Position numbers and translations under genes: made by a program. This document shows positions 7,250-61,440 of a stretch of DNA of 64,000 nt, in pieces (position 1 is the stretch's first letter; every line of letters begins with the position of its first letter). The notes beneath the pieces are model-generated. The model was not told where the DNA came from. It saw only the letters and a list, made by a program, of their open reading frames with translations, and searched no databases. This stretch comes from Haliclystus octoradiatus (taxonomy: Eukaryota > Cnidaria > Staurozoa > Stauromedusae > Haliclystidae), in contig OU744451.1 of assembly GCA_916610825.1 (NCBI GenBank), forward strand, positions 11,596,864-11,660,863, read 5' to 3'.

Positions 7250-7345
7250 ATGTCTGATACATGCTTTTCTAATTATAATGTTACTCCATTTTTATTATAC
7301 AAAATTAATCAATAAACGGGAAATTTGTTTAAAGGTATAAAATTA

Positions 7346-7558
7346 GGGTCCTACGAAAAGGGTGACCATGACCATGACTATGACCATGACTGGCTACGAA
7401 AACGATGACCGGTGACTGCTACCGGCTATGAAAACGGTGACCAAATTCGGTGACTGGCTACAAAACCGTGACCAAATTCGGTGACTGGCTACGAAAATGG
7501 TGACCATGACAAGTCAGCCATGATGGTGACTTCCTACAAAAACGGTGACCGACCGTAT
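7346..7558 (+). repeat. Left TIR of the Mutator-like element, GGTGAC minisatellite
   Basis: The arm contains repeated GGTGACTGGCTACGAAAAC and CCATGACCATGAC-type units. It matches the reverse complement of 9,643-9,811 apart from unit-number differences. Confidence 0.85.
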
Positions 7559-9642
7559 TTATTCAAAAATGAAATTGAAAATAATGTTGAAATTTGTAAA
7601 CATTTTCTTGACTTTAGCCATTTTCAAAGAATAAATTTTTTAAAACGTACATAATTTAAAATTTATAGTATTAAAATTGAAAAGAGTTAATGTAATTTAC
7701 ATGCTAGTAATTTTTAGATTTATGACTAAAACAATACATGCAAGGAATTTTTTACATTTTTTATTTATTTTATTATGATTAAAACAATACAGAGCGGATT
7801 GAATCAGCTTGCGAATTAAGATCAGGCTTAAGGTCTTTAATATACAGCATTTCATAGATGGCATATAGAGGCAATCCCATATTAATTTCTTGTATCTCTC
7901 TGTGAAATTTAGTTTATTTTTTAATCCTTACTCTTAATTCTTCTTCTATTACATCTTGTTGATAAGATTCTGTGGATTGCTTCCATTCAAGCAAAGGCTA
8001 TTCAAACAAACTCTATTCAATTTTAAACTTATAAGTCTATGTACTTTTTAAAATTTTATTCTCTTGAAAATGGTTGAAGATATCAGTCGAAATGATGCTG
8101 AGTCAATCAATAACTATTAAATATTCACCAGCTCCATACCTTTGTTTTTGCCTGCCTGAAGATGGAATAGATATAATAGTCCCCAGAAATTTAATTCTTT
8201 ATTCAAATCGGGATTCATACTCTGACGTTGATGAGCAATAGCAGAGGTAGAAGCGGAGAGTTTCCCGAGCTAGCAGTTGACGGTACGTTCATTGGGCCAA
8301 TGTTTCGATAAAGACAAGTCAATATAGAGTGGACTGTAGTTGAGAGAACCCACGTTTCAGATGCGTATACCGTAGTAGCAGAATAGGCTCTATCGTGTGT
8401 CTGAACAGACGTAACTTATTTAACGTCAGTGTTAACAGTATTAACATTGGATGCCCAGAATTTGTTCAGGCCTTTACGATGGGTTAGACCATCTGAAGAT
8501 GGTGGAAGTACACAGGACCTATATAGCCATTTGAGCAACTTCACGCCTTCTATGTCATCATTTGATCTAGCAAGGTGTGCCTGTCCTATGCCTAAAGAAA
8601 TAAATTCCGTCTTATAGACGTGTTGATTGCAAGCCTACAGTTGTACCCAGAGCCATCTATTTACAAGAGTTGGGACACGCTTTCATGTGCCGCTATCGTC
8701 TCCTATTGGGCAGATGCCATTCACGTGATTTTTTGGACGCCATTTTCGTACTTTCGGCACCAGGGTTCTTGTTCTTTTGGCGCCAGGTTTCCTGTTTTAA
8801 GCGAAGCGCGCGGAAATATACAACTTTTGAAAACAAACATAGGCTACTAAATTATTAATTGTTGTGTTAATAGGCACATAGTAATCAAAATAAAAGTATT
8901 GTTTACTATTCCAACTGGGGACAAGAATTAGAAAAAGTTGTCTTTGACTGCAAAGAATAAGCGTAAGAGCATAAGAGATACTCTTTTAACTCTACAAACT
9001 CCTTGTCCATTTAGCAATTCCAATAGCATTGATCTGATTTACCCTTGAGCAATATGCTGATGAGATCAATAACATAGTATACATTGAAGTAAATTTGTAT
9101 TCTAATTTTAAGAATCCAGCAAATAAATATGGAGAAAGACAACTCATAAATGGTTATATTACTCTTGCTAAACAATCGCAAACCATTTCACAGAGTTCCA
9201 AAATGGCTGTAAAAAACACAACATTCTCTTACACATGCGCATTGCTGTTGAAAACGTGCTCGGGTCCAGGCCAAAAAAACATAAATGGCATCAGTGTTCC
9301 AACTCTTGTAAATAGATGGCTCTGGTTGTACCAACTCAGTCTATAACTAGCCTGCACCACAGACCATAATTCATTCACGAATGAAAATAAGCGAACATCT
9401 TCAAAATTGTCCTGTGAAAAACTCTTGTATTTATGAATTCGTTTTGCTTTGAAACGCCAAGAAAAAGTATGACATTTCAGGCAATACTCTATTTTTATCA
9501 GGATTTTAATAAACATATGTTATGGAATAATTTAAAGGAAAAAATATTAGAATTATGGAAAGCATGGACACTATTTAACCAATCTAAGCAATCTGTTTTG
9601 CAATTACTTTAACATTTTTCCATTTTCTAATACATATGATAT

Positions 9643-9811
9643 ATACGGTCGGTCACCGTTTTTGTAGGAAGTCACCGTCATGGCTGACTTGTCATGGTCA
9701 CCATTTTTGTAGTCAGTCACCGAATTTGGTCACTGTTTTCGTAGCCAGTCCCCGTCATGGTCACCGTTTTCGTATGCAGTCATGGTCATGGTCACCGTTT
9801 TCGTAGGACCC
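9643..9811 (-). repeat. Right TIR of the Mutator-like element
   Basis: The reverse complement of the left arm, beginning ATACGGTCGGTCACCG and ending CGTAGGACCC. It has fewer internal minisatellite units than the left arm (169 versus 213 bp). Confidence 0.85.
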
Positions 9812-9915
9812 ATAAAATTATATTTACATTGATATTTTATTACATGTTTAAAAAAGGTTGCTAACTCCAGCTAACTATCTATCTATATCTATGGATAATT
9901 TACATTTGTAAATGT

Positions 9916-29224: not shown

Positions 29225-30361
29225 ATGTCATCAGTAAATTGTTCTTTTGCCTCAAATCTGTCTGAAAATCAGCTACCTGAAGTGATGTCCACGACTGTAA
29301 ATGTTATTCTTCAGGAAGAAACAGTCAAAATAGTTCAAAATGCCGACAAAGAAGAGATGGTTGAGTGGAACAAAGGCTTTATGGAGATTCTGTATAATAA
29401 CAGCGTAGATGTTTCAAGGAAAAAGTTGAACAGGGCAAAGAAAGGAGATTTGCTGGAATTATGTATATATTTATTCGAAATCAGTCGCGATATTTTATGT
29501 AAAACTGATCAGACTGTGGTTTTACCCGCCACAGATTCAAACGAAATTATACCGGAAACGTCAGTAATTCAGGCTATTGTTGATCAGCCTTTGGTTTCAT
29601 CCGCCATAGACTTGATGGAAGCGTTACCGGAAACATTAGCAGAAAATTCACTCTCGTCACTCAATGAAGATATAGATATTTATCAAAATGAATCAGCTGT
29701 TGTTAACAACATTGAAAGAACAAAACCTATTGTCTGTAATGATCTGCTAAATGGAAAGTGTACATTTGGGTTTTCAGGACGGACAGGCGGTCATTGTTTG
29801 AATTATCATCCGAAAATATGTTATCAACATCTAAAGCATGGAAATTACCCCGGTGGTTGTCCTCATAAGAAAGAACAGTGTTCACGATTTCACTTATTTA
29901 TCTGCCCCTCATCTTTTCAAAAGAAGGAATGTTTCAACAAACGGTGTCATTTTGCTCATCTAAAAGGAACACAAAGGGTCCCAAACAAGAACCCACCCCC
30001 AGCTTTTCCTTCTCCTTTATCACAATCAAATTTGCCTAGAAACATCCCTGTATCTAGTTCGGTTGATAACAGTCAAGGCATAGGTGGCACCGCATCACCT
30101 CCACAACATCCCAATATATTACTACCTCAACATTTACAACAACCTTTTTTATGCAATGTGCGACCTCACCCATTTCCTTACGAAAATCTCCAGGGTCAAG
30201 CGAGGGGCACTCATCATCACCTCACACAGAATCTACCATCCCCATTCGGACAACCATGGCAGGATGTGCTCCGAAACCAAAACGAAAGGATGACTCAAAT
30301 GTGTCAACAAATGAGTCATATGATGTCATTCTTCAAACAGTACATCCACGGTCCAGCATAA
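29225..30361 (+). CDS. LINE ORF1 protein with three CCCH zinc fingers
   Basis: A 378-residue open frame. Its first ~165 residues are acidic and unrecognised. About residues 170-250 carry three CCCH-type fingers: C-x7-C-x11-C-x3-H starting at CNDLLNGKC; C-x12-C-x6-C-x3-H starting at CYQHLKHGNYPGGC; and C-x8-C-x4-C-x3-H starting at CPSSFQKKEC. The C-terminal part is rich in Pro, Gln and Asn. CCCH fingers bind RNA in other proteins, so the natural inference is an RNP-forming role with the element transcript. Most LINE ORF1 proteins use CCHC knuckles or RRM/coiled-coil folds instead. ORF2 overlaps its last ~210 bases in another frame. A degraded homologue lies at about 19.7-20.3 kb. Confidence 0.85.
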   Translation: MSSVNCSFASNLSENQLPEVMSTTVNVILQEETVKIVQNADKEEMVEWNKGFMEILYNNSVDVSRKKLNRAKKGDLLELCIYLFEISRDILCKTDQTVVLPATDSNEIIPETSVIQAIVDQPLVSSAIDLMEALPETLAENSLSSLNEDIDIYQNESAVVNNIERTKPIVCNDLLNGKCTFGFSGRTGGHCLNYHPKICYQHLKHGNYPGGCPHKKEQCSRFHLFICPSSFQKKECFNKRCHFAHLKGTQRVPNKNPPPAFPSPLSQSNLPRNIPVSSSVDNSQGIGGTASPPQHPNILLPQHLQQPFLCNVRPHPFPYENLQGQARGTHHHLTQNLPSPFGQPWQDVLRNQNERMTQMCQQMSHMMSFFKQYIHGPA

Positions 30362-33324
30362 ACTCCAGTGTCATCACCTCATCTAACCCAATAATCGCAA
30401 CATGTCCTAATTCCAAGGCTGAAGTATATAATTGCCAAAGCATGGATACAGCTACATCTACTAACGATATTCCAGCTATAAACTCTTCAAAGAAATTAAC
30501 ATCCTTAAAATGCTATTATTTTAATTCACGGTCCCTCATGAACAAGTTAGATCAGTTTCACATGTTACTTAATTCAAATCTTTATGATGTCATTCTTGTA
30601 ACTGAAACATGGCTTACTTCTATTGTTCCAGATTCTTTATTAATCAATTTAACCCCGTATAGTATTATTCGCACTGATAGACGGCATGATGGAAATGGAG
30701 GCGGTGTTGCTATTATTTTAAGAAATACCCTACGATACACTATTCCTGACATACCATCCAACTTTTCAAATTTAGAAGCAATCATTATGGACATTCATTT
30801 TTCGTCGAGAGAGCAGCAACGACTGGTATGTGTTTACCATCCGCCTTCGGCAGCATGTAGTTCTAGCAGCACATACTCACTATGTTCCTTTATGGACTTC
30901 TGCACAAATTATCATTTCCCTTGTTTCACTTTTGGTGATTTTAATTTTCCTTCAATCGACTGGACTGTTCCGACAAGTTTCGGAGATATTTGTCATGATT
31001 CCTTTCTTGAGTCTATTAACAGAAATAATCTCAAACAAATTATTACTGAACCCACACGTTTGGATAATTGTCTGGATCTCGTTATTACTTCAACGCCAGA
31101 CTCGATTACTGAAATTGATGTTGTAGAACCATTCACGAACAAATGTGACCATAACGCTATTGAAATATCAATTAATATACCATTACATCCACATAGCAAA
31201 AGATCTATTAATCGTAATTTTCGCAAGGCAGATTATCCATCAATATGTCAAAGTTTACAACACGTTGATTGGTTATCCATTTACCACAATTGTAATAAAG
31301 ATGTCCACTCTTTTTGGGACAGCATTTGTAACATTCTTGATACAGCTATAGAATTACATGTGCCAACATCCAACAACAGTTCACGTAAATCAAAATATCC
31401 TAAAACAATAAGACATCTAATGCTAAAACGCCGATGTGCTTACCGATTACGTAACAATTCCGATACACAAAAGCAAATATATAAATCTATATCTCGTGAG
31501 TACGATAATGCTGTCAAAGAACATAACATTAAACGTGAAAGCTCTCTTCTTGATGATGTCTCTCTTACAAGGTTTTATTCATTCGTTAATTCAAAATTAC
31601 ACTCGCAGCCTTCAATACCTCCAATTTATGATGTTAATGATGAACTACGAATTGATGACATCGACAAATCTACAATTCTCAATGATTACTTTACTTCAGT
31701 TTTTAGTCAAGACGATGGAACAAGTCCAGCATTTGAAAGCAAGGTAAATCCAGAGAAAAATCTCAATTTTATTCAATTTTCTTCTTTAAATGTTCTGAAG
31801 GCATTACATAGCCTTCCAAACAAAACATCGCGTTCACCTGATGGATATCCGGCCCTATTTCTGAAGTCAATCGCTTATGAAATAACACTGCCTTTATCAA
31901 TGCTATTCGAACTATCAATTTTAAGCGGAGAGCTACCTACAATTTGGAAAACCGCTATTGTTGTTCCTATTTTTAAAAAAGGAAAATCCTCAATGAGACA
32001 GAACTACAGACCTATATCTTTAACATGCATCATCTGTAAAGTCATGGAATCTATAATCAATTCACAAATTCGTACATATCTATTAGTTAATAACATTATT
32101 TCAAAACAGCAGTATGGTTTCCTTGCCCGACGATCAACCTGCACACAATTACTGGATACGCTACACGAGTGGAGTAAGGCCTTGAATAACTGTTTTAAGA
32201 TAGACGCCGCCTACATTGATTTCAGCAAGGCGTTCGATACCGTTAGTCACCAAAAGTTACTAATCAAATTGAAAGCTTATGGCATTGACTATGAATTACT
32301 AACTTGGATATCTTCTTTTTTAACCGGTCGTACCCAAAGAGTATCTGTTGGTAATAGTTTATCGTCACCCTCGAATGTAGTTAGTGGTGTTCCTCAAGGT
32401 TCCGTATTGGGACCTCTATTATTTATATTGTTCATAAATGACATTGCTGATTGCCTTGAAGGTGATTGTAAAGTAAGTTTATTTGCAGACGATTCAAAAT
32501 TTTATTCTGCCCGAAAAAACGGGACTTCAGCAAATTTATCAAAAACTCTCGAAAATCTGGCACAATGGGCGAAAACTTGGCAGCTGAGGATAGCATTCGA
32601 AAAGTGCTCCTTGTTTACAACATCTAAACCGAACTGTAACAATACTTCCTACAATTTAGATGGTCATCACTTACAAACAGTTTATAGAATTCGAGACCTT
32701 GGTATCATAGTTACGTCCGATTTGAAGCCTTCGTCTCATTGTTCAATGATAGCAGCAAAAGCGTATTCACGTTCTTACTTAATTATGAAATCATTTACAT
32801 CAAAAGATCCCTTATTATTATTAAATGCATTCAAAGTCTATGTAAGACCTATTCTAGAGACTTGTTCCCCAGTTTGGAACCCTTGCTTAGCAAAAGATAT
32901 CGTATTGCTAGAAAAAATTCAGCGATTTTTTACAAGATTCATATGTAACGCTGCCAATCTCAAATTTATTGATTACTGTGATCGCCTAAAGCTCCTCAAG
33001 CTAGAATCATTAGAGTCGAGGAGGGTTAAAGCTGATTTAATCATGATTTATAAAATCACGCATGACTTAGTTGATTTATCTCTTGATTCGATAAATTGTA
33101 AATATCTTGTAAACAAATATACAATGCGTGGTCATCCTTACAAACTATATTCAACGCAAATGTGTAGGACCAATATTACGAAATTTATGTTTAACAACAG
33201 AGTGATACCATGGTGGAACTCACTACCGGACTTTGCAGTTAATTCTAAGACTGTCAAAGAGTTCAAGGCATCACTCGAAAAAGTAAACACGTTATCACAT
33301 TGCAAAATTTTTGGCCATGGTTAA
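30151..33324 (+). CDS. LINE ORF2: APE endonuclease plus reverse transcriptase
   Basis: An uninterrupted 1,057-codon frame. The endonuclease occupies about residues 118-340, with FNSRSLMNK, VTETWL (about 149), GDFNFPSIDW (about 264) and KCDHNAIEI (about 332). The reverse transcriptase spans about residues 560-850, with NYRPISLTCI, QYGFLARRSTC, AYIDFSKAFDT, SGVPQGSVLGP and the catalytic LFADDSKFY. A C-terminal domain ends in NRVIPWWNSLP. All catalytic motifs are present and no stop interrupts them, so this copy may have been active recently. The true start is uncertain: the first Met overlaps ORF1 by 211 bases, and a later Met at 30,256 is also in frame. Reinitiation or frameshifting from ORF1 is possible. 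Confidence 0.93.
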   Translation: MQCATSPISLRKSPGSSEGHSSSPHTESTIPIRTTMAGCAPKPKRKDDSNVSTNESYDVILQTVHPRSSINSSVITSSNPIIATCPNSKAEVYNCQSMDTATSTNDIPAINSSKKLTSLKCYYFNSRSLMNKLDQFHMLLNSNLYDVILVTETWLTSIVPDSLLINLTPYSIIRTDRRHDGNGGGVAIILRNTLRYTIPDIPSNFSNLEAIIMDIHFSSREQQRLVCVYHPPSAACSSSSTYSLCSFMDFCTNYHFPCFTFGDFNFPSIDWTVPTSFGDICHDSFLESINRNNLKQIITEPTRLDNCLDLVITSTPDSITEIDVVEPFTNKCDHNAIEISINIPLHPHSKRSINRNFRKADYPSICQSLQHVDWLSIYHNCNKDVHSFWDSICNILDTAIELHVPTSNNSSRKSKYPKTIRHLMLKRRCAYRLRNNSDTQKQIYKSISREYDNAVKEHNIKRESSLLDDVSLTRFYSFVNSKLHSQPSIPPIYDVNDELRIDDIDKSTILNDYFTSVFSQDDGTSPAFESKVNPEKNLNFIQFSSLNVLKALHSLPNKTSRSPDGYPALFLKSIAYEITLPLSMLFELSILSGELPTIWKTAIVVPIFKKGKSSMRQNYRPISLTCIICKVMESIINSQIRTYLLVNNIISKQQYGFLARRSTCTQLLDTLHEWSKALNNCFKIDAAYIDFSKAFDTVSHQKLLIKLKAYGIDYELLTWISSFLTGRTQRVSVGNSLSSPSNVVSGVPQGSVLGPLLFILFINDIADCLEGDCKVSLFADDSKFYSARKNGTSANLSKTLENLAQWAKTWQLRIAFEKCSLFTTSKPNCNNTSYNLDGHHLQTVYRIRDLGIIVTSDLKPSSHCSMIAAKAYSRSYLIMKSFTSKDPLLLLNAFKVYVRPILETCSPVWNPCLAKDIVLLEKIQRFFTRFICNAANLKFIDYCDRLKLLKLESLESRRVKADLIMIYKITHDLVDLSLDSINCKYLVNKYTMRGHPYKLYSTQMCRTNITKFMFNNRVIPWWNSLPDFAVNSKTVKEFKASLEKVNTLSHCKIFGHG

Positions 33325-38699: not shown

Positions 38700-40732
38700 A
38701 AGTTTATGTCGAAAATGATTAACCATCACAATATAACCATAATCGTTATAGCTATTTCTTCATATAAAGGTACATCAGTATAATACCTTGCTATAGTGCA
38801 CAAAAGTTCGTATCTTAAACAGTTTTATCATCGACTTCTTAATTTTCCTCATTAAACTTATCGGTACAATAGCCGATATTCTTTACTAATAAACACGTAT
38901 AATTTAATCCAAACAAATTCATCGTTAATAACTATAATTCGTGAGTAATACTTCATACAAAGGTGTATCCGTATCATACGTTGCTATAGTGCACAAAAGT
39001 TCGTATCTTTTACAGCTTTTTCATCGACTTATTCATTTTCCTCATTAAACTTATCGGTTCAAATCAGGATTTTTTACTACTGAACACGTCTAATTTACCC
39101 CGATTTTGATCAAAACAAGTCATTTTGAAATAACTCCAATTTGTAGCTAATTCTTCACACAAAGGTGTATCAGTATCATACCTTGCTATAGCGCACAAAA
39201 GTTTGTATATTAAAGGGTTTTTTCATCGACTTATTCATTTTCCTCATTAAACTTATCGGTTCAAATCAGGATTTTTTACTACTGAACAAGTGTAATTTAC
39301 TCCGATTTTGATCAAAACAAGTCATTTTGAAATAACTCCAATTTGTAGCTAATTCTTCACACAAAGGTGTATCAGTATCATACCTTGCTATAGTGCACAA
39401 AAGTTTGTATATTAAAGGGTTTTTTCATCGACTTATTCATTTTCCTCATTAAACTTATCGGTTCATTTCAGGATTTTTTGATCAGTACTAAACTCATGTA
39501 GTTTAATCCACGCTAATTCATGGTTAATCGCTATAATTGCTAGCTAATACTTCACACAAATGTGTATCAGTATAATACCTTGCTATAGTGCACAAATGTT
39601 CGTATCTTAGACGGCTTTTTCATCGAATTATTCATTTTCCTCATTAAACTTATCGGCTCAAATCAGGATTTTTTACTACTGAACACATCTAATTTACCCC
39701 GATTTTGATCAAAACAAGTCATTTTGAAATAACTCCAATTTGTAGCTAATTCTTTGCACAAAGGTGTATCAGTATTATACCTTGCTATAGTGCACAAAAG
39801 TTCGTATCTTAGACGGCTTTTTCATCGACTTATTCATTTTCCTCATTAAACTTATTGGTTGAAATCAGGATTTTTTACTACTGAACACGTCTAATTTACC
39901 CCGATTTTTATCAAAACAAGTCATTTTGAAATAACTCCAATTTGTAGCTAATTCTTCACACAAAGGTGTATCGGTATCATACCTTGCTATAATGCACAAA
40001 AGTTTGTATATTAAAGGGTTTTTTCATCGACTTATTCATTTTCCTCATTAAACTTATCGGTTCATTTCAGGATTTTTTGATCAGTACTAAACTCATGTAG
40101 TTTAATCCACGCCAATTCATGGTTAATCGCTATAATTGCTAGCTAATACTTCATACAAATGTGTATCAGTATAATACCTTGCTATAGTGCACAAAAGTTC
40201 GTATCTTAAACGGCTTTTTCATCGAATTATTCATTTTCCTCATTAAACTTATCGGTTGAAATCAGGATTTTTTACTACTGAACACGTGTAATTTACCCCG
40301 ATTTTGATCAAAACAAGTCATTTTGAAATAACTCAAATTTGTAGCTAATTCTTCACACAAAAGTGTATCACTATCATACCTTGCTACAATGCACAAAAGT
40401 TTGTATATTAAAGGGTTTTTTCATCGACTTATTCATTTTCCTCATTAAACTTATCGGTTCAAATCAGGATTTTTTACTACTGAACACGTGTAATTTACCC
40501 CGATTTTGATCAAAACAAGTCATTTTGAAATAACTCCAATTTGTAGCTAATTCTTCACACAAAGGTGTATCAGTATCATACCTTGCTATAATGCACAAAA
40601 GTTTGTATATTAAAGGGTTTTTTCATCGACTTATTCATTTTCCTCATTAAACTTATCGGTTCATTTCAGGATTTTTTGATCAGTACTAAACTCATGTAGT
40701 TTAATCCACGCCAATTCATGGTTAATCGCTAT
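38700..40732 (+). repeat. ~200-bp satellite array, left part
   Basis: Ten occurrences of CTCATTAAACTTATCGG spaced about 200 bases apart. Two unit variants alternate irregularly: one with TTTTTTACTACTGAACACGT, the other with GATCAGTACTAAACTCATG. The array is interrupted at 40,732 by the BEL/Pao element and resumes at 47,371. Confidence 0.92.
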
Positions 40733-41098: not shown

Positions 41099-41165
41099 GT
41101 TTCGAATCATAGTTCGAATTAAAGTCTCGATAAAGAAATTAGAAATAAAAAGAAATTAATCAAGA

Positions 41166-44100
41166 ATGGCCGACGACGCTGAAGCGATTCGGAGGAGATT
41201 TGAGAGGAGATCAAAGGCTTATAATAGAGAAATAGAAGAATTTACAACGATAAAAGAACAAGAATTTGTAGCAATAGGCACTTGGAAGTCAATACTATTC
41301 AAGGTAACTGAAGCTAGAAAACAAGTAGAAGAAACAGCGTCGACTTACCTAGACGTGCTCGATGAAAATAACGCTTTAAATGGCCAATTAGAATTGGAAA
41401 TAGATCACAGAGTTGATGAATGCAGAAAACTTCACTTTGAAATCAGAGCAGAAACTACGAAGATGATCCATGAACTTGAAGAAAATGAAGCAGAAAAAAC
41501 TCACAAACGCGCGTTAGAGATCGCCGCCGCAACGCAAAATAATCAAGTAAACATTAATGAAGAAAACGCAGGAGGTGAAAGCAGCCATCATGAATCAGCC
41601 TCTTTCGAACAAAATGATCAAAATGACGTCACCGATGTAAACAACGACGGAGACGACGCAGACTCTGTTGTAGAAAGAGAAAGACCAACAGAAAATAACA
41701 AAGAAAAAGAAATCACAGCAGGAAATCAAAAACATCAGGAAGAACTCACCCATGAAGAGGGGCAACAAAGCAAAGAAAACGAAAGTGGAAATGCAACCAA
41801 AAGAGATGACAACATAATCACAATAGAATTACTCAAAGATTTATCAAAAACAGCAGCTGAAGCTGCTGCAGTTGCAGCCATCAGAGCAATTAACATAGAG
41901 GGCAAGGCAACACACTCAAACAAAACATCTATTCGTTTAGCTGGATTCACCCCCAATTCATGGAATGGAGAATTTAAAGGATTTCCAACCTTCCAAAAGC
42001 GATTTACTTCAGCAATGAACAATGCCGGAGTTTTGGATGATGATGTCAAGCTACAATGGCTTGAAAAATCAATACCACAGTCTTACCATACAACTATTGA
42101 AGGACGCTCAACATTAGTCGAAGCATGGAAAGCGTTAAAGTTAGTTGTAACTGACAAAAAAATATCTGATGAACTGATGTGGAATTTCCGAAAATTAAAA
42201 CCTATACAAGATAAAGACCAAAACGTAATCCAAACATTTGTCACAACAATACGTACGCATATGATGTACCTAAAAGATTTTGGGAAAGGAAACCGTACAG
42301 AAGATGAGGAATTCATCAAAGATTTGAAGAGAAAGACAGGAGCGGAATTCGAAGATCAAATTGAAGACCAGTTGGCACAAGAAAACAGAATCGCAAGAAA
42401 AATGAACATGAAAGAAGAAGAACTCTCAGCCGACTATATTTTAGAATTCTTGGAAAGAAGACTGTTATCATCAAATTCTTACAGAACAGAAAAGAAACAG
42501 CAAACATTATCAAAGAAAGAGTCAAGGAACTTCAAAGAAGCAAAAGTCAACGTCTTGCAAACAACCAATGACCTCAATTGTCAACTGTGTAACAATGGAA
42601 AACATGGATTAGAAGATTGTAACAAGTTCAAAGAATTTGAAGTAGCAGAGAGATCTGAATACTGTAAAAGCAAAGGCCATTGCTTTGGATGTCTTGGAAA
42701 GGGTCACATTAGACCACAATGCAAATCAGAAGTAACATGTCAACATTGTAGAAAGAAACATCACAGTTTACTGCACAGAAGTACATATTCAAATCAAGAA
42801 GCCTCAACAGCCAATATCACACAGAGGACAGCATCAACTAACACAACAACGAAACGTCTCAACAGTTCACAAGAATCTACAGCAACAAGACTACCTGTAC
42901 TAAAGATCTGGATAAAAACTGGTTATAAAAATGCTGATGGTACAACACAAATTAGAGCTGCAACATGTTTGATGGATGGAGGTGCTGATACAACTCTGGT
43001 TCGAAGAAACTTTGTAGAATCATTAGGCCTTCAAGGTGAAGACACTACTATTCATTATGAAGTCGTTGGAGGAAGCCATCATAAAGAAGTCACACAGAAG
43101 TATGAACTCACTGTAGGACGTTTGGAGCCCATGGCAGAGAAAGGAAGAATTACAGCTTATGCAATGAAAAGACCATGTGGCGCAGCAGCATCACTTCACA
43201 AAGAATTCTTTGCAAAAAATGAACATTTGAATCAAATCAAGGAAGTTGTAGACACAGATGGTGGTGAGATTGATGTTATCATTGGGAGAGATGCTCAAGA
43301 GTTACACACAGAATTACAAAGAATGACGAAAGAGAGCAGCAAATCAGCCCCAATTGGAATCGAGTTTCCATTAGGATGGACAATCGTTGGTGGAACAACT
43401 CATGTCAGTAAGAAGTCAGGAGCAACAAGAAAAGTCACATCAGTCACACTAGCAGAAGAAACAGACATATCATCTACTGAAAATATGAGCACACTAATGA
43501 TGTCAGATTTGGTTGGTGTTAACACAACGCAACGCTGTGTTTGTACAGATAAGGAAATCGAAGAAGCTAGATTTATAAAGATAGCAAAAGAAAACACGAC
43601 AATCAATGAAGATGGGAGAATAGAAGTCAGATTACCTTGGAAACCTGGCTATCCAGAAGGACTACCAAATAATTACAAAGAAGTTTCAACCAATCTTAAG
43701 AGGAAAGTAAAACGACTGCAAGAAACAAACAAATTGGAGGACTACCAAAGAGCAATTCAAGAAGTAATAGAATCTGGATTTGTGAAAAAGGTAGAACTCA
43801 AAGAAGGAGAAATGGCCCATTACTTAGAACACCATCTAGTTGAAAGAGATGATAGTGCATCAACTCCCAAAAGAGTAGTTTGGAACTCTGCAAAGATCTA
43901 CCGTGGACAATCAGTAGCTAAAGCATTGGAAAAGGGGCCAGATTTACTAAACTCATTGTTCAAGGTCTTCATTGGTTTCAGAGAGCAACAGATTGGATTC
44001 ACAGGAGACATAAGAAAAATGTTCAATATGATCAGCATTTCTGAAGAAGATCGAAAGTATCATCGATTCCTATGGATTGAAGAAGGAAATGAAAACCCAA

Positions 44101-46934
44101 CTGCTTATGAATGGCAAAGACTTGTTTTTGGTGACCCTCCAAGTCCTGATTTGTCACAGGAAAGTCTTCACTATTTGGCAACAAAATTTGGAAAGGACTA
44201 TCCAATTGGATCAAGCATCGTAAAGAATCACATCTATATGGACGATGTTGCCAGCTCCAGAAATCAACCTAGAGAAGCAGAACAAGTCATCAAAGAAACA
44301 ACTCAACTGTTATCAAAAGCAAAGTTTGAAATAAAGAAATGGCATTCCAATTCCATTGAATTAGAAGAAAAAATGAACAAGAAGATTGAAGACAGTAATA
44401 ACCTATCAGAAAATCGTGATACAACCATTTTGGGTCACTACTGGGAGAAAGACATAGATACAATCTCACTGAAATTGAAAAAACTACCAAAGATTGAAAT
44501 TGATGCATCTTCAAAGACCCAAGAACATAAACTGTCAAAAAGAATCATTTTAAGCATGATAGCCAAAGTTTGGGACCCTCTCGGAATTCTGTCACCAGCA
44601 TTGGTAAACTTGAGAATTCCTTTACAACAACTGTGGAGAAAAAAATATGATTGGGACACAGCCATAGTGGGAGAAGATGCTGATGACTGGGTGGATAGAT
44701 TCAAACAATTAGAAGGAAAGCTGTCAACCAAAATTGAGCGCTGCATCACTGAAGAAAACAACACCGAATTGCCTGAGCTGCATGCATTTTCCGACGGCGG
44801 AGATAAAGCTTTTGGCACATGCGTTTACCTACGACAGAAAAGAGAAGATGGCACATTTAATGTACACTTTGTAGCAGCCAAATCTTTTGTAACACCAGTC
44901 AAAGGTTGGACAATACCTCGAACGGAATTAGTTGCTACACTAGTAATGTCTCGACTAGTAAAGAACATTGTCTCAGCATTAATGATCAAACCAAGCACAA
45001 TTTCATACTGGGTTGATTCTAAAGTGGTATTGCATTGGATTAGATCAAGAACTCCTCAGATGAAGGCATTTGTTGAAGCGAGAATTAACGAGATTCAAGA
45101 AACAACCAAGATTGAAGATTTCCATTATGTTCCTTCTAAAGAGAATGCTGCAGATGCACTGACAAAACCGAACAATGTAGACTTAGAGCAATGGCACCAA
45201 GGACCGAAATTCTTACAAGAAAAGATTATTCCAGAATTTGAAACAGCAAATATCACTAAAGAAATTGAGCTAAGAAAAGATTTGACTGAAATAAAACCTG
45301 AAAGAAAAAAGCGCAAAAAGAAGACCTGTATAGCAAAGAAGGTGAATGCTTACTTCTCGGTTGCAAACACAATTACAAAGATGAGTGATGAAGAATGTAA
45401 ACAAATACTACAAATTGCAGCAGATAGCAACTCAATGGAAGAAGCAATTAACAAAATTTCAGAAAAATCAAACAAGACTGATCACAAAGGAGGTAAAATG
45501 AAGATATATCAAGCTCTGCAAAGAAATACTAACTTTGACGATAAGAATTTCAAGAAACTCTGTCCTTTCATTGATGACGAAGACAAAATTTACAGATTAG
45601 GTGGAAGATTAGAACACCTTAAAGATTTCAAGCCCGACTTAGCAGCACCAATAATCATTCCGAAATGTAAAAGGAACAAAGAAAATGACCATTATACTAA
45701 TCACAAAAAAGTCATCAACATGGTTACGAAAGAATTTCATGAACAAACAGGACACTGCGGAGTCAACCGAACACGATCTGCGATTGAACAATCAGGACTC
45801 TGGATAATTGGAGTCAACAGAATATTGAAAACAATTGGAAAGAACTGTCTATACTGCAGAAGAAGGAAACGTCCTCTGTTGGAACAAAAGATGGGTCAAC
45901 TCCCAAGTTTTCGACTGGACTGTGACAAACCTGCCTTCTGGTCATCTGCTGTCGACTTCTTTGGTCCACTTAAAACGAAGCTATACCGTGGAACTGTGAA
46001 AGATGCTCATGTAGCCTTATTTGTATGCACCGTCACAAGGGCAATACACCTTGAGTTCTGTTACGACCAGGAAGGTGGGGAAGGTCTTTCAACTGAAAAA
46101 TTTCTAATGGCTCTTAGGAGATTCGTCAGCTTGAAAGGAATTCAGCCTGTACAACTGTACAGCGATAATGGACCAAATTTAATTGGAGCATCTCCAAAAG
46201 TAGAAAAGTTAGTAAAAGAATGGGATATAAAAGTGCTAGAAAACGGAATTAAAGGAAATGGTTTCCAATGGTTATGGAATTGTCCTACTGCGTCCCATCA
46301 CAATGGAGTTGTTGAGACATTTGTCAACTTGGTCAGAAAAGCATTGGACGCCATGGCAGATTGCTATAACAACACTTTAAAGCCTGATGAATGGATGACT
46401 GCTCTTGCTGAAGTAGCTTATCTTATAAATTCAAGACCACTTTGGCCAAACTCAAGTGCGGATCCTATTGATATGAACGAGATTATAACACCAAATTCCT
46501 TGCTGTATGGACATCATCTGACTCTTCCACAGCCACAAGATGAAAATAAAATACATCCAAAAGATCGTATGGCATCAATTCAGAAGCGTATTCAAATTTT
46601 CTGGAATTATTGGTCATCGAATATGCCAAATCGTCTATTATGTCGAAATAAGTGGTTTTCACAAAGAAGAAACCTGGAAGTTGGAGATATTGTTTTGGAA
46701 AAAAAGAACAACTTAAATGGAATTACCCCGAGAGCAATATGGCCAGTCGCTATGGTAACTGAAACGTTCCCTGGTACAGATGGACTTGTCAGGAAGGTGA
46801 AGATTCAAAACAAAGCTGGAAGTTATGATAGACCTATTGCAAAGCTTATTCTATTGGCAACAAAAGAAGAAATAGATGCAAAAGCCATCAACGGTACAGA
46901 AGAAATCCTGGCTGGTATAAAAAGAATAAGATAA
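41166..46934 (+). CDS. BEL/Pao Gag-Pol polyprotein, intact
   Basis: A single 1,922-codon frame. Residues 1-130 form a charged coiled-coil-like N-terminus. The Gag region, with IRLAGFTPNSWNGEFKGFPT near 255, is followed by three Cys/His clusters near 474-530 (CQLCNNGKHGLEDC, CFGCLGKGHIRPQC, CQHCRKKHH). An aspartic protease carries DGGADT near 602. The reverse transcriptase has GDIRKMF near 945 and YMDDVASS near 1,024. RNase H has FSDGGDKAFG near 1,208. The integrase has its HHCC zinc region near 1,525-1,563, DFFGPL near 1,597, YSDNGPN near 1,666 and HHNGVVET near 1,712, supplying the D,D,E residues. The C-terminal segment has WFSQRRNLEVGDIVL near 1,830. Domain order PR-RT-RH-IN and the shape of these motifs are those of BEL/Pao. 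Everything needed for replication is in frame, so the copy may be competent. Confidence 0.96.
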   Translation: MADDAEAIRRRFERRSKAYNREIEEFTTIKEQEFVAIGTWKSILFKVTEARKQVEETASTYLDVLDENNALNGQLELEIDHRVDECRKLHFEIRAETTKMIHELEENEAEKTHKRALEIAAATQNNQVNINEENAGGESSHHESASFEQNDQNDVTDVNNDGDDADSVVERERPTENNKEKEITAGNQKHQEELTHEEGQQSKENESGNATKRDDNIITIELLKDLSKTAAEAAAVAAIRAINIEGKATHSNKTSIRLAGFTPNSWNGEFKGFPTFQKRFTSAMNNAGVLDDDVKLQWLEKSIPQSYHTTIEGRSTLVEAWKALKLVVTDKKISDELMWNFRKLKPIQDKDQNVIQTFVTTIRTHMMYLKDFGKGNRTEDEEFIKDLKRKTGAEFEDQIEDQLAQENRIARKMNMKEEELSADYILEFLERRLLSSNSYRTEKKQQTLSKKESRNFKEAKVNVLQTTNDLNCQLCNNGKHGLEDCNKFKEFEVAERSEYCKSKGHCFGCLGKGHIRPQCKSEVTCQHCRKKHHSLLHRSTYSNQEASTANITQRTASTNTTTKRLNSSQESTATRLPVLKIWIKTGYKNADGTTQIRAATCLMDGGADTTLVRRNFVESLGLQGEDTTIHYEVVGGSHHKEVTQKYELTVGRLEPMAEKGRITAYAMKRPCGAAASLHKEFFAKNEHLNQIKEVVDTDGGEIDVIIGRDAQELHTELQRMTKESSKSAPIGIEFPLGWTIVGGTTHVSKKSGATRKVTSVTLAEETDISSTENMSTLMMSDLVGVNTTQRCVCTDKEIEEARFIKIAKENTTINEDGRIEVRLPWKPGYPEGLPNNYKEVSTNLKRKVKRLQETNKLEDYQRAIQEVIESGFVKKVELKEGEMAHYLEHHLVERDDSASTPKRVVWNSAKIYRGQSVAKALEKGPDLLNSLFKVFIGFREQQIGFTGDIRKMFNMISISEEDRKYHRFLWIEEGNENPTAYEWQRLVFGDPPSPDLSQESLHYLATKFGKDYPIGSSIVKNHIYMDDVASSRNQPREAEQVIKETTQLLSKAKFEIKKWHSNSIELEEKMNKKIEDSNNLSENRDTTILGHYWEKDIDTISLKLKKLPKIEIDASSKTQEHKLSKRIILSMIAKVWDPLGILSPALVNLRIPLQQLWRKKYDWDTAIVGEDADDWVDRFKQLEGKLSTKIERCITEENNTELPELHAFSDGGDKAFGTCVYLRQKREDGTFNVHFVAAKSFVTPVKGWTIPRTELVATLVMSRLVKNIVSALMIKPSTISYWVDSKVVLHWIRSRTPQMKAFVEARINEIQETTKIEDFHYVPSKENAADALTKPNNVDLEQWHQGPKFLQEKIIPEFETANITKEIELRKDLTEIKPERKKRKKKTCIAKKVNAYFSVANTITKMSDEECKQILQIAADSNSMEEAINKISEKSNKTDHKGGKMKIYQALQRNTNFDDKNFKKLCPFIDDEDKIYRLGGRLEHLKDFKPDLAAPIIIPKCKRNKENDHYTNHKKVINMVTKEFHEQTGHCGVNRTRSAIEQSGLWIIGVNRILKTIGKNCLYCRRRKRPLLEQKMGQLPSFRLDCDKPAFWSSAVDFFGPLKTKLYRGTVKDAHVALFVCTVTRAIHLEFCYDQEGGEGLSTEKFLMALRRFVSLKGIQPVQLYSDNGPNLIGASPKVEKLVKEWDIKVLENGIKGNGFQWLWNCPTASHHNGVVETFVNLVRKALDAMADCYNNTLKPDEWMTALAEVAYLINSRPLWPNSSADPIDMNEIITPNSLLYGHHLTLPQPQDENKIHPKDRMASIQKRIQIFWNYWSSNMPNRLLCRNKWFSQRRNLEVGDIVLEKKNNLNGITPRAIWPVAMVTETFPGTDGLVRKVKIQNKAGSYDRPIAKLILLATKEEIDAKAINGTEEILAGIKRIR

Positions 46935-47370: not shown

Positions 47371-48305
47371 GCTATAATTGCTAGCTAATACTTCACACAA
47401 ATGTGTATCAGTATAATACCTTGCTATAGTGCACAAAAGTTCGTATCTGAAACGGCTTTTTCATCGAATTATTCATTTTCCTCATTAAACTTATCGGTTG
47501 AAATCAGGATTTTTTACTACTGAACACGTGTAATTTACCCCGATTTTGATCAAAACAAGTCATTTTGAAATAACTCAAATTTGTAGCTAATTCTTCACAC
47601 AAAAGTGTATCACTATCATACCTTGCTATAATGCACAAAAGTTTGTATATTAAAGGGTTTTTTCATCGACTTATTCATTTTCCTCATTAAACTTATCGGT
47701 TCAAATCAGGATTTTTTACTACTGAACACGTGTAATTTACCCCGATTTTGATCAAAACAAGTCATTTTGAAATAACTCAAATTTGTAGCTAATTCTTCAC
47801 ACAAAGGTGTATCACTATCATACTTTGCTATAATGCACAAAAGTTTATATTTTAAAGGGTTTTTTCATCGACTTATTCATTTTCCTCATTAAACTTATCG
47901 GCTCATTTCAGGATTTTTTGATCAGTACTAAACTCATGTAGTTTAATCCACGCCAATTCATGGTTAATCGCTATAATTGCTAGCTAATACTTCACACAAA
48001 TGTGTATCAGTATAATAACTTGCTATAGTGCACAAAAGTTCGTATCTTTTACGGCTTTTTTATCGACTTATTCATTTTCCTCATTAAACTTATCGGTTCA
48101 AATCAGGATTTTTTACTACTGAACACGTGTAATTTACCCCGATTTTGATCAAAACAAGTCATTTTGAAATAATTCCAATTTGTAGCTAATTCTTCACACA
48201 AAGGTGTATCAGTATCATACGTTGATATAGTGCACAAAATTTCGTATCTTTTACGGCTTTTTCATCGACTTATTCATTTTCCTCATTAAACTTATCGGTT
48301 GCCTA
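47371..48305 (+). repeat. ~200-bp satellite array, part right of the BEL/Pao insertion
   Basis: Five further occurrences of CTCATTAAACTTATCGG at about 200-base spacing, in the same orientation as the left part. Confidence 0.92.
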
Positions 48306-53639: not shown

Positions 53640-54860
53640 ATATCGCGATAGGGAATTAACCGATAAGTTTAATCAGGAAAATGGATAAGTTGATGAAAAA
53701 TCCCTTTAAGAAACGGAAGTATTAGCTACCAATTATAGCTATTTCTAAATTACTTGTTTTGATTAAAATCGGATTGAAATACAAGTGTTCAGTAGTAAAA
53801 AAATCCTGATAGCCTAAGTTTAATGAGAAAAATTAATAAGTTGATGATAAAGCCGGTCAAGACACGGACATTTGTGCACTATAGCAAGGTATTCTATTGA
53901 TACACTTATTTGTGAAGTATTAGCTACCAATTATAATTATTAACCATGAATTTGTTTGGATGAAATTATACGTATTTAATAGTAAAGAATATCGGCTTTT
54001 GTAGCGATAAGTTTAATGAGGAAAATTAATAAGTCGATGATAAAACCTGTAAAGATACTAACTTTTGTGCACTAGAGCAAGGTATTATACTGATGCACCT
54101 CTATATGAATTATTACTTACGAGTTATAGTTGTTAGCGATGAATTTGTTGGATTAAATTATACGTGTTTATTAGTAAAGAATATCGGCTTTTGTACAAAT
54201 AAGTTTAATGAGGAAAATTGAGAAGTCGATGATAAAACCCGTAAAGATACGAACTTTTGTGCATTTTAGAAAGGTATTATACTGATGCACCTTTATATGA
54301 AGTATTACTTACGAATTATAGTTATTCACCATGAATTTGTTTGGATTAAATTATACGTGTTTAATGGCAAAGAATATCGGCTTTCGTATCGATAAGTTTA
54401 ATAGCAAAGAATATCGGCTATTGTACCGATAAGTTTAATGAGGAAATCTATAAGTCCATGAAAAAACCCGTAAAGATACGAACTTTTGTGCACTAGAGCA
54501 AGGTATTATACTGATGCACCTCTATATGAAGTATTACTTACGAGTTATAGTTGTTAAGCGATGAATTTGTTTGGATTAAATTATACGTGTTTATTAGTAA
54601 AGAATATCGGCTTTTGTACAAATAAGTTTAATGAGGAAAATTGAGAAGTCGATGATAAAACCCGTAAAGATACGAACTTTTGTGCATTTTAGAAAGGTAT
54701 TATACTGATGCACCTTTATATGAAGTACTACTTACGAATTATAGTTATTAACCATGAATTTGTTTGGATTAAATTATACGTGTTAATAGTAAAGAATATC
54801 GGCTTGTTTCCCGATGAGGTTAATGGGGAAAATGTTTCCCGATGAGTTTACCCAAAGCAA
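53640..54860 (-). repeat. ~200-bp satellite array in inverted orientation
   Basis: About seven to eight occurrences of GATAAGTTTAATGAGGAAA-like sequence, spaced about 190 bases apart. They also contain GAACTTTTGTGCACTA-AGCAAGGTATTATACTGAT, which is the reverse complement of the satellite at 38.7-40.7 and 47.4-48.3 kb. These units are more divergent than the left array. Confidence 0.85.

Positions 54861-60951: not shown

Positions 60952-61440
<489 letters not shown>

What the first reader, a model, noticed from the sequence alone, without database searches (positions are those of the whole stretch)
7337..9820. Mutator-like element whose terminal inverted repeats are minisatellites
A perfect 9-bp duplication (ATAAAATTA) and matching GGGTCCTACG/CGTAGGACCC ends define the element. 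Each arm is made of variant GGTGAC/GGCTACGAAAAC units with different copy numbers (213 versus 169 bp). TIRs that expand and contract as tandem repeats are uncommon and could multiply transposase-binding sites. The 2-kb interior matches no transposase I know, so captured host sequence is possible.
Basis: partly seen in the sequence, partly recalled or inferred. Interest (0 to 1): 0.75.

Follow-up and report, generated by a model that had tools for sequence, protein, structure and literature searches.

The report
Foldback-type transposon with repeat-built ends
This is a worn, apparently non-coding "jumping gene" whose two ends are built from tandem copies of one short motif; it belongs to a small family in this genome and is a new example of a long-known design (Foldback elements), not a new kind of thing.

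Summary
At 7337-9820 a 2,466-bp element with a perfect 9-bp duplication has inverted arms of 217 and 173 bp made of repeats sharing a 17-bp core, 6 copies against 5. It is a real insertion: it sits in a dispersed repeat, and all 20 other copies of that repeat that I aligned across the junction lack the insert. At least about 18 family loci exist. Arms differ in core number in 6 of 7 two-armed copies. I found no recognisable transposase in the copies read, by selected ORFs or by eye. The 2-kb interior is not captured host sequence but family sequence, internally deleted, plus two nested small transposons. Best reading: a non-autonomous Foldback-type element, probably moved in trans by a Mutator-superfamily transposase. 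That is inferred from the 9-bp duplication and long arms; the genome search for the MULE domain did not complete, and three of the seven two-armed copies show no duplication. Minisatellite arms are the hallmark of Foldback elements. New member of a known kind; low to moderate interest.

The parts
7337..7345 (.). left copy of the 9-bp target-site duplication ATAAAATTA
   Evidence: no second copy of the target in 20 of 20 fetched empty paralogues (in L060 the target is partly deleted, in L056 diverged)
7346..7562 (+). left arm, 217 bp, 6 cores CTACGAAAACGGTGACC, spacings 43,32,32,31,45
7563..7611 (+). left subterminal family sequence
   Evidence: window element positions 1-270 match L026, L027, L028 and L030, and 81-270 match L029
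7612..8110 (.). nested fragment of a dispersed inverted-repeat element (MITE-like), left end apparently trimmed
   Evidence: 91 matches listed, 3 of them the window itself (40 of 93 candidates scored), the two ends matching each other inverted; no match here in the 13 other copies compared
8115..8639 (+). family interior retained after internal deletion (8115-8221 matched only in L042; about 8221 onward in several copies)
8640..8647 (.). left 8-bp TSD GTTGTACC of the nested hAT-like element
8648..9324 (.). nested 677-bp hAT-like element, ends CAGAGCCATCTATTTACAAGAGTTGGGAC
   Evidence: 32-nt arms, 97%; second copy with its own 8-bp TSD in L027; 7 family copies uninterrupted at the window site
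9325..9332 (.). right 8-bp TSD GTTGTACC of the nested hAT-like element
9333..9638 (+). right subterminal family sequence
   Evidence: 12 matches, one itself; 7 of the other 11 cover at least 200 of 306 bases
9639..9811 (-). right arm, 173 bp, 5 cores, spacings from the end 30,32,32,45
9812..9820 (.). right copy of the 9-bp target-site duplication ATAAAATTA

Best explanation
A non-autonomous Foldback-type cut-and-paste DNA transposon. SHOWN: it inserted into a copy of a dispersed repeat and duplicated 9 bp. It is one of at least about 18 loci of a low-copy family. The same 17-bp core forms the outermost unit next to the end (after GGGTC) and the tandem units of the arms. The family sequence examined shows no coding signal. 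The window copy is an internally deleted derivative that holds two other small transposons. INFERRED: a transposase supplied in trans, most likely of the Mutator (MULE) superfamily, binds the repeated core, so that several cores per arm hold several transposase units and give specificity. Slippage, unequal exchange and arm-to-arm conversion change the number of cores, which costs little as long as the outer terminal unit stays. Probability that it is a Foldback-type DNA transposon: about 0.95. Probability that the mobilising enzyme is MULE-type: about 0.7.
For: 9/9 TSD and 97% complementary outer ends. Empty paralogous sites. A second family copy with a 9/9 TSD, TATCTCGAC, at C1:17785293/17947818; 7/9 at L029; 8/8 at the 346-bp copy L037. 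Arm anatomy in 21 arms: 1-6 cores; unequal between arms in 6 of 7 two-armed copies. Family interior: no clear codon-phase bias in 6 pairwise alignments, 13 of 70 gaps a multiple of three, longest ORF of L026 109 aa against about 120 at the 95th percentile of 100 shuffles; 20 selected ORFs without a significant Pfam domain. Multiple transposase-binding sites in tandem-repeat arms are reported for Galileo (PMC3688188, abstract seen). A Foldback-like family with 9-bp TSD and a Phantom-like MULE transposase is published (Tm1, PMC3169594, passages).
Against: No transposase was linked to these ends. Three of seven two-armed copies (L026 2/9, L027 and L028 5/9; the last two are one duplicated segment) have no TSD; recombination between copies could explain that, but it does not help the case. 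Whether the cores bind protein is untested. Arm-to-arm homogenisation is weakly supported: inner-arm identity within six elements is 0.90-0.96, and between elements, printed for 6 arms of 3 elements, mostly 0.85-0.96. The codon-phase test spans gaps and so is blunt, and one alignment leans (6, 10, 16 changes by phase).
Confidence: 0.85

Rival explanations
1. A Foldback-like element moved by a different transposase, for example P-superfamily (as Galileo) or Merlin, with similar repeat-built arms by convergence.
For: Galileo has Foldback-like arms but belongs to the P superfamily (PMC3688188 abstract), so arm structure alone does not name the enzyme. No MULE domain was found in the ORFs scanned. 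One copy (L037) has an 8-bp, not 9-bp, duplication.
Against: Two copies have exact 9-bp duplications; P-type elements give 7-8 bp and Merlin 8-9 bp (recalled). Tm1, a Foldback-type family with 9-bp TSD, has a MULE-type enzyme (PMC3169594 passages).
Confidence: 0.22
2. Pack-MULE-like element that captured a host gene fragment.
For: About 2 kb of interior without a recognised transposase.
Against: The interior is accounted for: family sequence, a dispersed MITE-like fragment with 88 matches elsewhere in the list, and a hAT-like element with precise 8-bp TSD absent from 7 family copies.
Confidence: 0.03
3. Not a transposon: an inverted pair of minisatellite arrays that arose by local duplication.
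For: Minisatellites can arise and invert locally (general knowledge).
Against: Dispersed copies with the same termini on seven contigs, 9-bp duplication, empty sites.
Confidence: 0.01

Closest known systems
Foldback (FB, FB4, FB-NOF) elements of Drosophila melanogaster
   Same: Palindromic termini, strongly variable modular interiors, non-coding copies taken to be non-autonomous (PMC2955051 passages). Arms of short tandem repeats with a unit near 31 bp and a 9-bp TSD are recalled, not from a call.
   Different: Arm sequence differs. FB4 termini are over 400 bp in all but two of the ten copies of that paper, longer than the arms here (217 bp at most in the window). No NOF-like gene was looked for by name.
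Tm1 Mutator/Foldback family of Meloidogyne nematodes
   Same: Composite arms of tandem units whose number differs between arms and copies, 9-bp TSD, MITE-like derivatives (PMC3169594 passages).
   Different: Tm1 units are 13-15 bp and its outermost 7-bp motifs are asymmetric, outside the inverted repeat. Here the outermost motif is symmetric and contains the repeat core. Tm1 has members encoding a putative transposase; none was found here.
Tetris (D. virilis)
   Same: Foldback arms with tandem repeats, 8-9 bp TSD in its three complete copies, autonomous copy not found (PMC4079207 passages).
   Different: Repeat unit about 220 bp, arms up to 1,735 bp.
Galileo (P superfamily, Drosophila)
   Same: Works-like model: tandem repeats in the arms hold extra transposase-binding sites (PMC3688188 abstract).
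   Different: P-superfamily enzyme with THAP domain; 7-bp TSD (recalled).
Rehavkus
   Same: 9-bp TSD, a minisatellite, grouped near MULEs (PMC6446971 passages).
   Different: There the minisatellite is described as lying before the 3' TIR; here both arms are the minisatellite. No PHD-finger transposase was found or searched for.

Membership tests
Foldback-type DNA transposon (structural class) | long terminal inverted repeats made of short tandem repeats | tested here: met
Foldback-type DNA transposon (structural class) | repeat number varies between arms and copies | tested here: met
   unequal in 6 of 7 two-armed copies; 1-6 cores over 21 arms
Foldback-type DNA transposon (structural class) | insertion with target-site duplication and an empty form | tested here: met
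   (empty form shown for the window copy only)
Foldback-type DNA transposon (structural class) | multiple dispersed copies with variable interiors | tested here: met
Mutator superfamily (MULE) | 8-11 bp TSD (PMC6446971) | tested here: met
   window 9/9, C1 copy 9/9, L029 7/9, L037 8/8; against: L026 2/9, L027 and L028 5/9
Mutator superfamily (MULE) | long TIRs | tested here: met
   16 arms with a clear inner motif measure 97-218 bp up to it; published range 14-500 bp (PMC6446971)
Mutator superfamily (MULE) | MULE DDE transposase in an autonomous member | tested here: inconclusive
   20 selected ORFs of L026, L027, L030 and the window gave no significant Pfam domain; seven other copies were read by eye only, apart from two ORFs of L036; the genome-wide PF10551 search did not complete (22 calls, first 12, last 83)
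hAT superfamily (nested element 8648-9324) | 8-bp TSD and CAGAG... ends | tested here: met
   two copies; the end motif as a hAT mark is recalled
hAT superfamily (nested element 8648-9324) | hAT transposase in an autonomous member | not tested
   not searched
Pack-MULE | captured host gene fragment | tested here: not met

The most novel reading that the evidence does not exclude
The repeat arrays are graded transposase landing platforms in which the cleavage-proximal site is the same motif as the internal units, kept interchangeable by exchange between arms. The family's pairing of arms also drives local rearrangement: 6 of 18 loci lie in 2.74 Mb of one chromosome, and two pairs of copies share 94.8-98.6% identical flanks, as segmental duplications would. 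The mobilising enzyme could be an undescribed 9-bp-TSD transposase rather than a MULE.
Probability: 0.12. Interest if true: 0.5.

Novelty: new member of a known kind. Interest (0 to 1): 0.27.

Why it matters
It adds a Foldback-type family with short-unit arms and a proven empty site, in a genome that I could not name. In it the terminal unit and the tandem units share one motif, which makes the "many binding sites per arm" idea simple to test. It also shows that an interior which looks like captured host DNA can be family sequence plus nested small transposons.

Tried and rejected
Captured host sequence: rejected. Giant transposon: the two ends on C1 lie 162 kb apart with a 9/9 TSD. On closer reading the element is colinear with the 4.7-kb copy L026 and is split by a 156-kb insertion. 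That insertion has its own 9-bp duplication TACGACGAT and 52-bp inverted ends (94%), and these ends belong to a common MITE-like family (92 matches, many in pairs about 355 bp apart). I therefore read it as a nest of insertions, not a giant element; only about 4.7 kb and 8.2 kb at its two ends were read. Autonomous copy: two larger members of that other family (L046, L067) were read in the hope of a 9-bp-TSD transposase; the longest open frame of L046 is 142 aa, and L067 carries a different nested element that I did not classify. Coding signal in the 4.7-kb interior: none clear. A THAP-domain ORF near copy L036 (Pfam E 1.9e-5) lies outside the matched family sequence and was not taken as the transposase. 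Arm homogenisation: weak. Host identity: one protein search gave five distant GPCR matches and no host name.

Full report
What is there. The arms are 7346-7562 and 9639-9811. Their outer 34 nt are 97% and their inner 101 nt 95% complementary; the middle differs in repeat number. A 9/9 duplication by chance has probability near 9e-6 at this composition.

Proof of insertion. I joined 250 bp of left flank (with the TSD) to 250 bp of right flank and searched the genome. The tool scored 40 of 101 candidates and listed 42 matches; 2 are the window's own flanks. Of the other 40, 30 run across the junction, so the element sits in a dispersed repeat, whose shared part begins near window 7285 in most of them. 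I fetched 20 of those 30. All 20 lack the 2.47-kb insert and none has a second copy of the target. Seventeen align across the junction with gaps of at most 1-2 bases; three (L054, L058, L060) have small deletions there, which in L060 remove part of the target, and L056 is diverged at it. Most read GGTAGTAAAATTATATTTAC where the filled site has one base fewer. Both TSD copies agree with the shorter form, so that difference should predate the insertion.

The family. The left arm finds 25 matches, two of them the window's own arms. A 27-base end pattern with up to 3 mismatches finds 21 places and its reversed control 0. A 22-base pattern finds 37, controls 1 and 2, so a few of its 3-mismatch places may be chance. 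I count about 18 loci, two or three of them weak fragments; the tool states that such counts are lower bounds. Seven copies have both arms: window (2,466 bp), C8 L026 (4,696), C2 L027 (8,934) and L028 (7,374), C7 L029 (4,734), C10 L037 (346) and a C1 copy of about 6.3 kb split in two (L030/L031). TSD: window 9/9, C1 9/9, L029 7/9, L037 8/8; L026 2/9, L027 and L028 5/9, i.e. none. L027/L028 share flanks at 98.6% (left) and 94.8% (right), and L029/L035 share the one flank compared at 98.2%, so these pairs look like duplicated segments rather than separate insertions. Six of 18 loci lie within 2.74 Mb of C7; random placement reached that in 1 of 20,000 trials, but the window size was chosen after seeing the data and one pair there is such a duplication.

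Arm anatomy. I dissected 21 arms; L036 (outer end missing), the fragments L040 and L044, and the unfetched C7:13904192 were left out. The 17-bp core CTACGAAAACGGTGACC (up to 4 edits) occurs 1-6 times, with spacings mostly 31-32 and 43-45. Twenty of 21 arms begin GGGTCCTA; L032 differs. The innermost unit, ending ACTTCCTACRAAAACGGTGACC or nearly so, is clear in 16 arms, which measure 97-218 bp up to it. The values that the script gave for L037 (135 and 65), L038 (93) and L039 (65) rest on a loose match, and L043 gave none. In most clear arms the innermost unit lies 45 bp from the unit before it; the middle varies. Core numbers left/right: window 6/5, L026 6/6, L027 6/5, L028 6/4, L029 4/5, C1 6/4, L037 4/2, so unequal in 6 of 7; L037 is diverged, and in L028 one right unit has been replaced rather than lost. 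In both window arms about 24 bp are missing just inside the innermost unit (also in L042) and both carry CTACAAAAACGG in it. This fits exchange between arms, but over six elements the within-element identity (0.90-0.96) hardly exceeds the between-element values printed for 6 arms of 3 elements, mostly 0.85-0.96.

The interior. Against the 4.7-kb copy L026 the window copy lacks about 3.4 kb, some of which may be insertions in L026. What it keeps (7563-7611, 8115-8639, 9333-9638) is family sequence (8115-8221 is matched only in L042). 7612-8110 is a fragment of a dispersed inverted-repeat element (91 matches listed from 40 of 93 candidates, 3 of them the window itself). 8648-9324 is a hAT-like element with 8-bp TSD GTTGTACC. 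Seven family copies (L026, L027, L028, L029, L031, L032, L036) carry the uninterrupted site, and another copy of the same element with its own TSD GGTGTGCC sits elsewhere in L027. So I see no captured host gene. Parts of the L026 interior are themselves higher-copy repeats (more than 1,100 candidates each, 40 scored).

Coding. Six pairwise alignments of interiors show no clear codon-phase bias; the test runs across gaps and is blunt, and one alignment leans (6, 10, 16). Thirteen of 70 gaps are multiples of three, and the longest ORF of L026 (109 aa) is within the shuffle range (about 120 at the 95th percentile of 100 shuffles). Twenty ORFs (12 of the 21 of 50 aa or more in L026, 4 of L027, 2 of L030, 2 of the window) gave no significant Pfam domain (the weak hits at E 0.013-0.042 fall below their cut-offs). 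ORFs of 130 aa or more in L032, L033, L035, L036, L038, L039 and L042 were read by eye only, apart from two of L036 put to Pfam; L040, L041, L043, L044 and L045 were not examined for ORFs. L029 holds a 730-aa frame and L027/L028 reverse-transcriptase-like pieces, which I take for nested retroelements (by eye; Pfam gave no match to the L029 frame at E 0.01). The copies read therefore look non-autonomous. Whether a MULE transposase exists in this genome could not be tested: the family search was unanswered in 22 tries.

How it works (inferred). A transposase in trans recognises the core. [quoted passage not shown] Here the terminal unit and the tandem units share one motif, so arms with few or many units should all work in some degree, which would explain why unit number drifts.

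Comparison with the literature. Foldback-type arms are described for D. melanogaster Foldback4 (PMC2955051 passages), Tetris (PMC4079207 passages; 8-9 bp TSD, no autonomous copy found), Tm1 (PMC3169594 passages; 9-bp TSD, Phantom-like MULE transposase) and, for Rehavkus, a minisatellite before the 3' TIR with 9-bp TSD (PMC6446971 passages). PMC13359780 (passages) treats arthropod MULEs, with TIRs of 13-1193 bp by its discussion. Composite units of hundreds of kilobases framed by Foldback elements are known as Ising's TE (PMC6431247 passages), which is why I followed the 162-kb pair on C1 before setting it aside. I searched the paper library six times and did not look for this particular family sequence in print, so I make no claim that it is unpublished.

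Verdict.

Noticed in passing
G000:C1:17789981-17946225 (ends in L030 and L031): A member of the family is split by a 156-kb stretch with its own 9-bp duplication (TACGACGAT) and 52-bp inverted ends (94%) of a common MITE-like family; a LINE-like gene (endonuclease and reverse-transcriptase ORFs, read by eye) lies near its left end. Read as nested insertions; only its two ends were read.
   Followed up: partly
L067 (G000:C2:25546420-25553640): A 7-kb member of that MITE-like family with 9-bp TSD TCCGCCATC holds what looks like a second element with inverted ends and several ORFs ending in a cysteine-rich stretch; not classified.
   Followed up: partly
L029 1089-3278 (+): 730-aa open frame nested in a family copy; I read reverse-transcriptase and GIY-YIG-like motifs by eye (Penelope-like), but Pfam gave no match at E 0.01.
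   Followed up: partly
C7:11.17-13.90 Mb and C2:20.90-20.97 Mb: Family copies cluster (6 of 18 loci in 2.74 Mb of C7), and two pairs share nearly identical flanks, as segmental duplications would.
   Followed up: partly
window 60956-61437: About 80 near-perfect copies of the hexamer TTACTA.
   Followed up: no
window 38749-40708, 47382-48300, 53815-54833: Three arrays of a related roughly 200-bp tandem repeat, the last in the opposite orientation by its consensus.
   Followed up: no
window 41160-46934 (+): 1,924-aa open frame that looks by eye like a Pao/BEL retrotransposon polyprotein; it lies between two of the roughly 200-bp repeat arrays, which may be its terminal repeats.
   Followed up: no
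window 30070-33324 (+): 1,084-aa open frame that looks by eye like a non-LTR retrotransposon ORF2 (endonuclease and reverse transcriptase).
   Followed up: no
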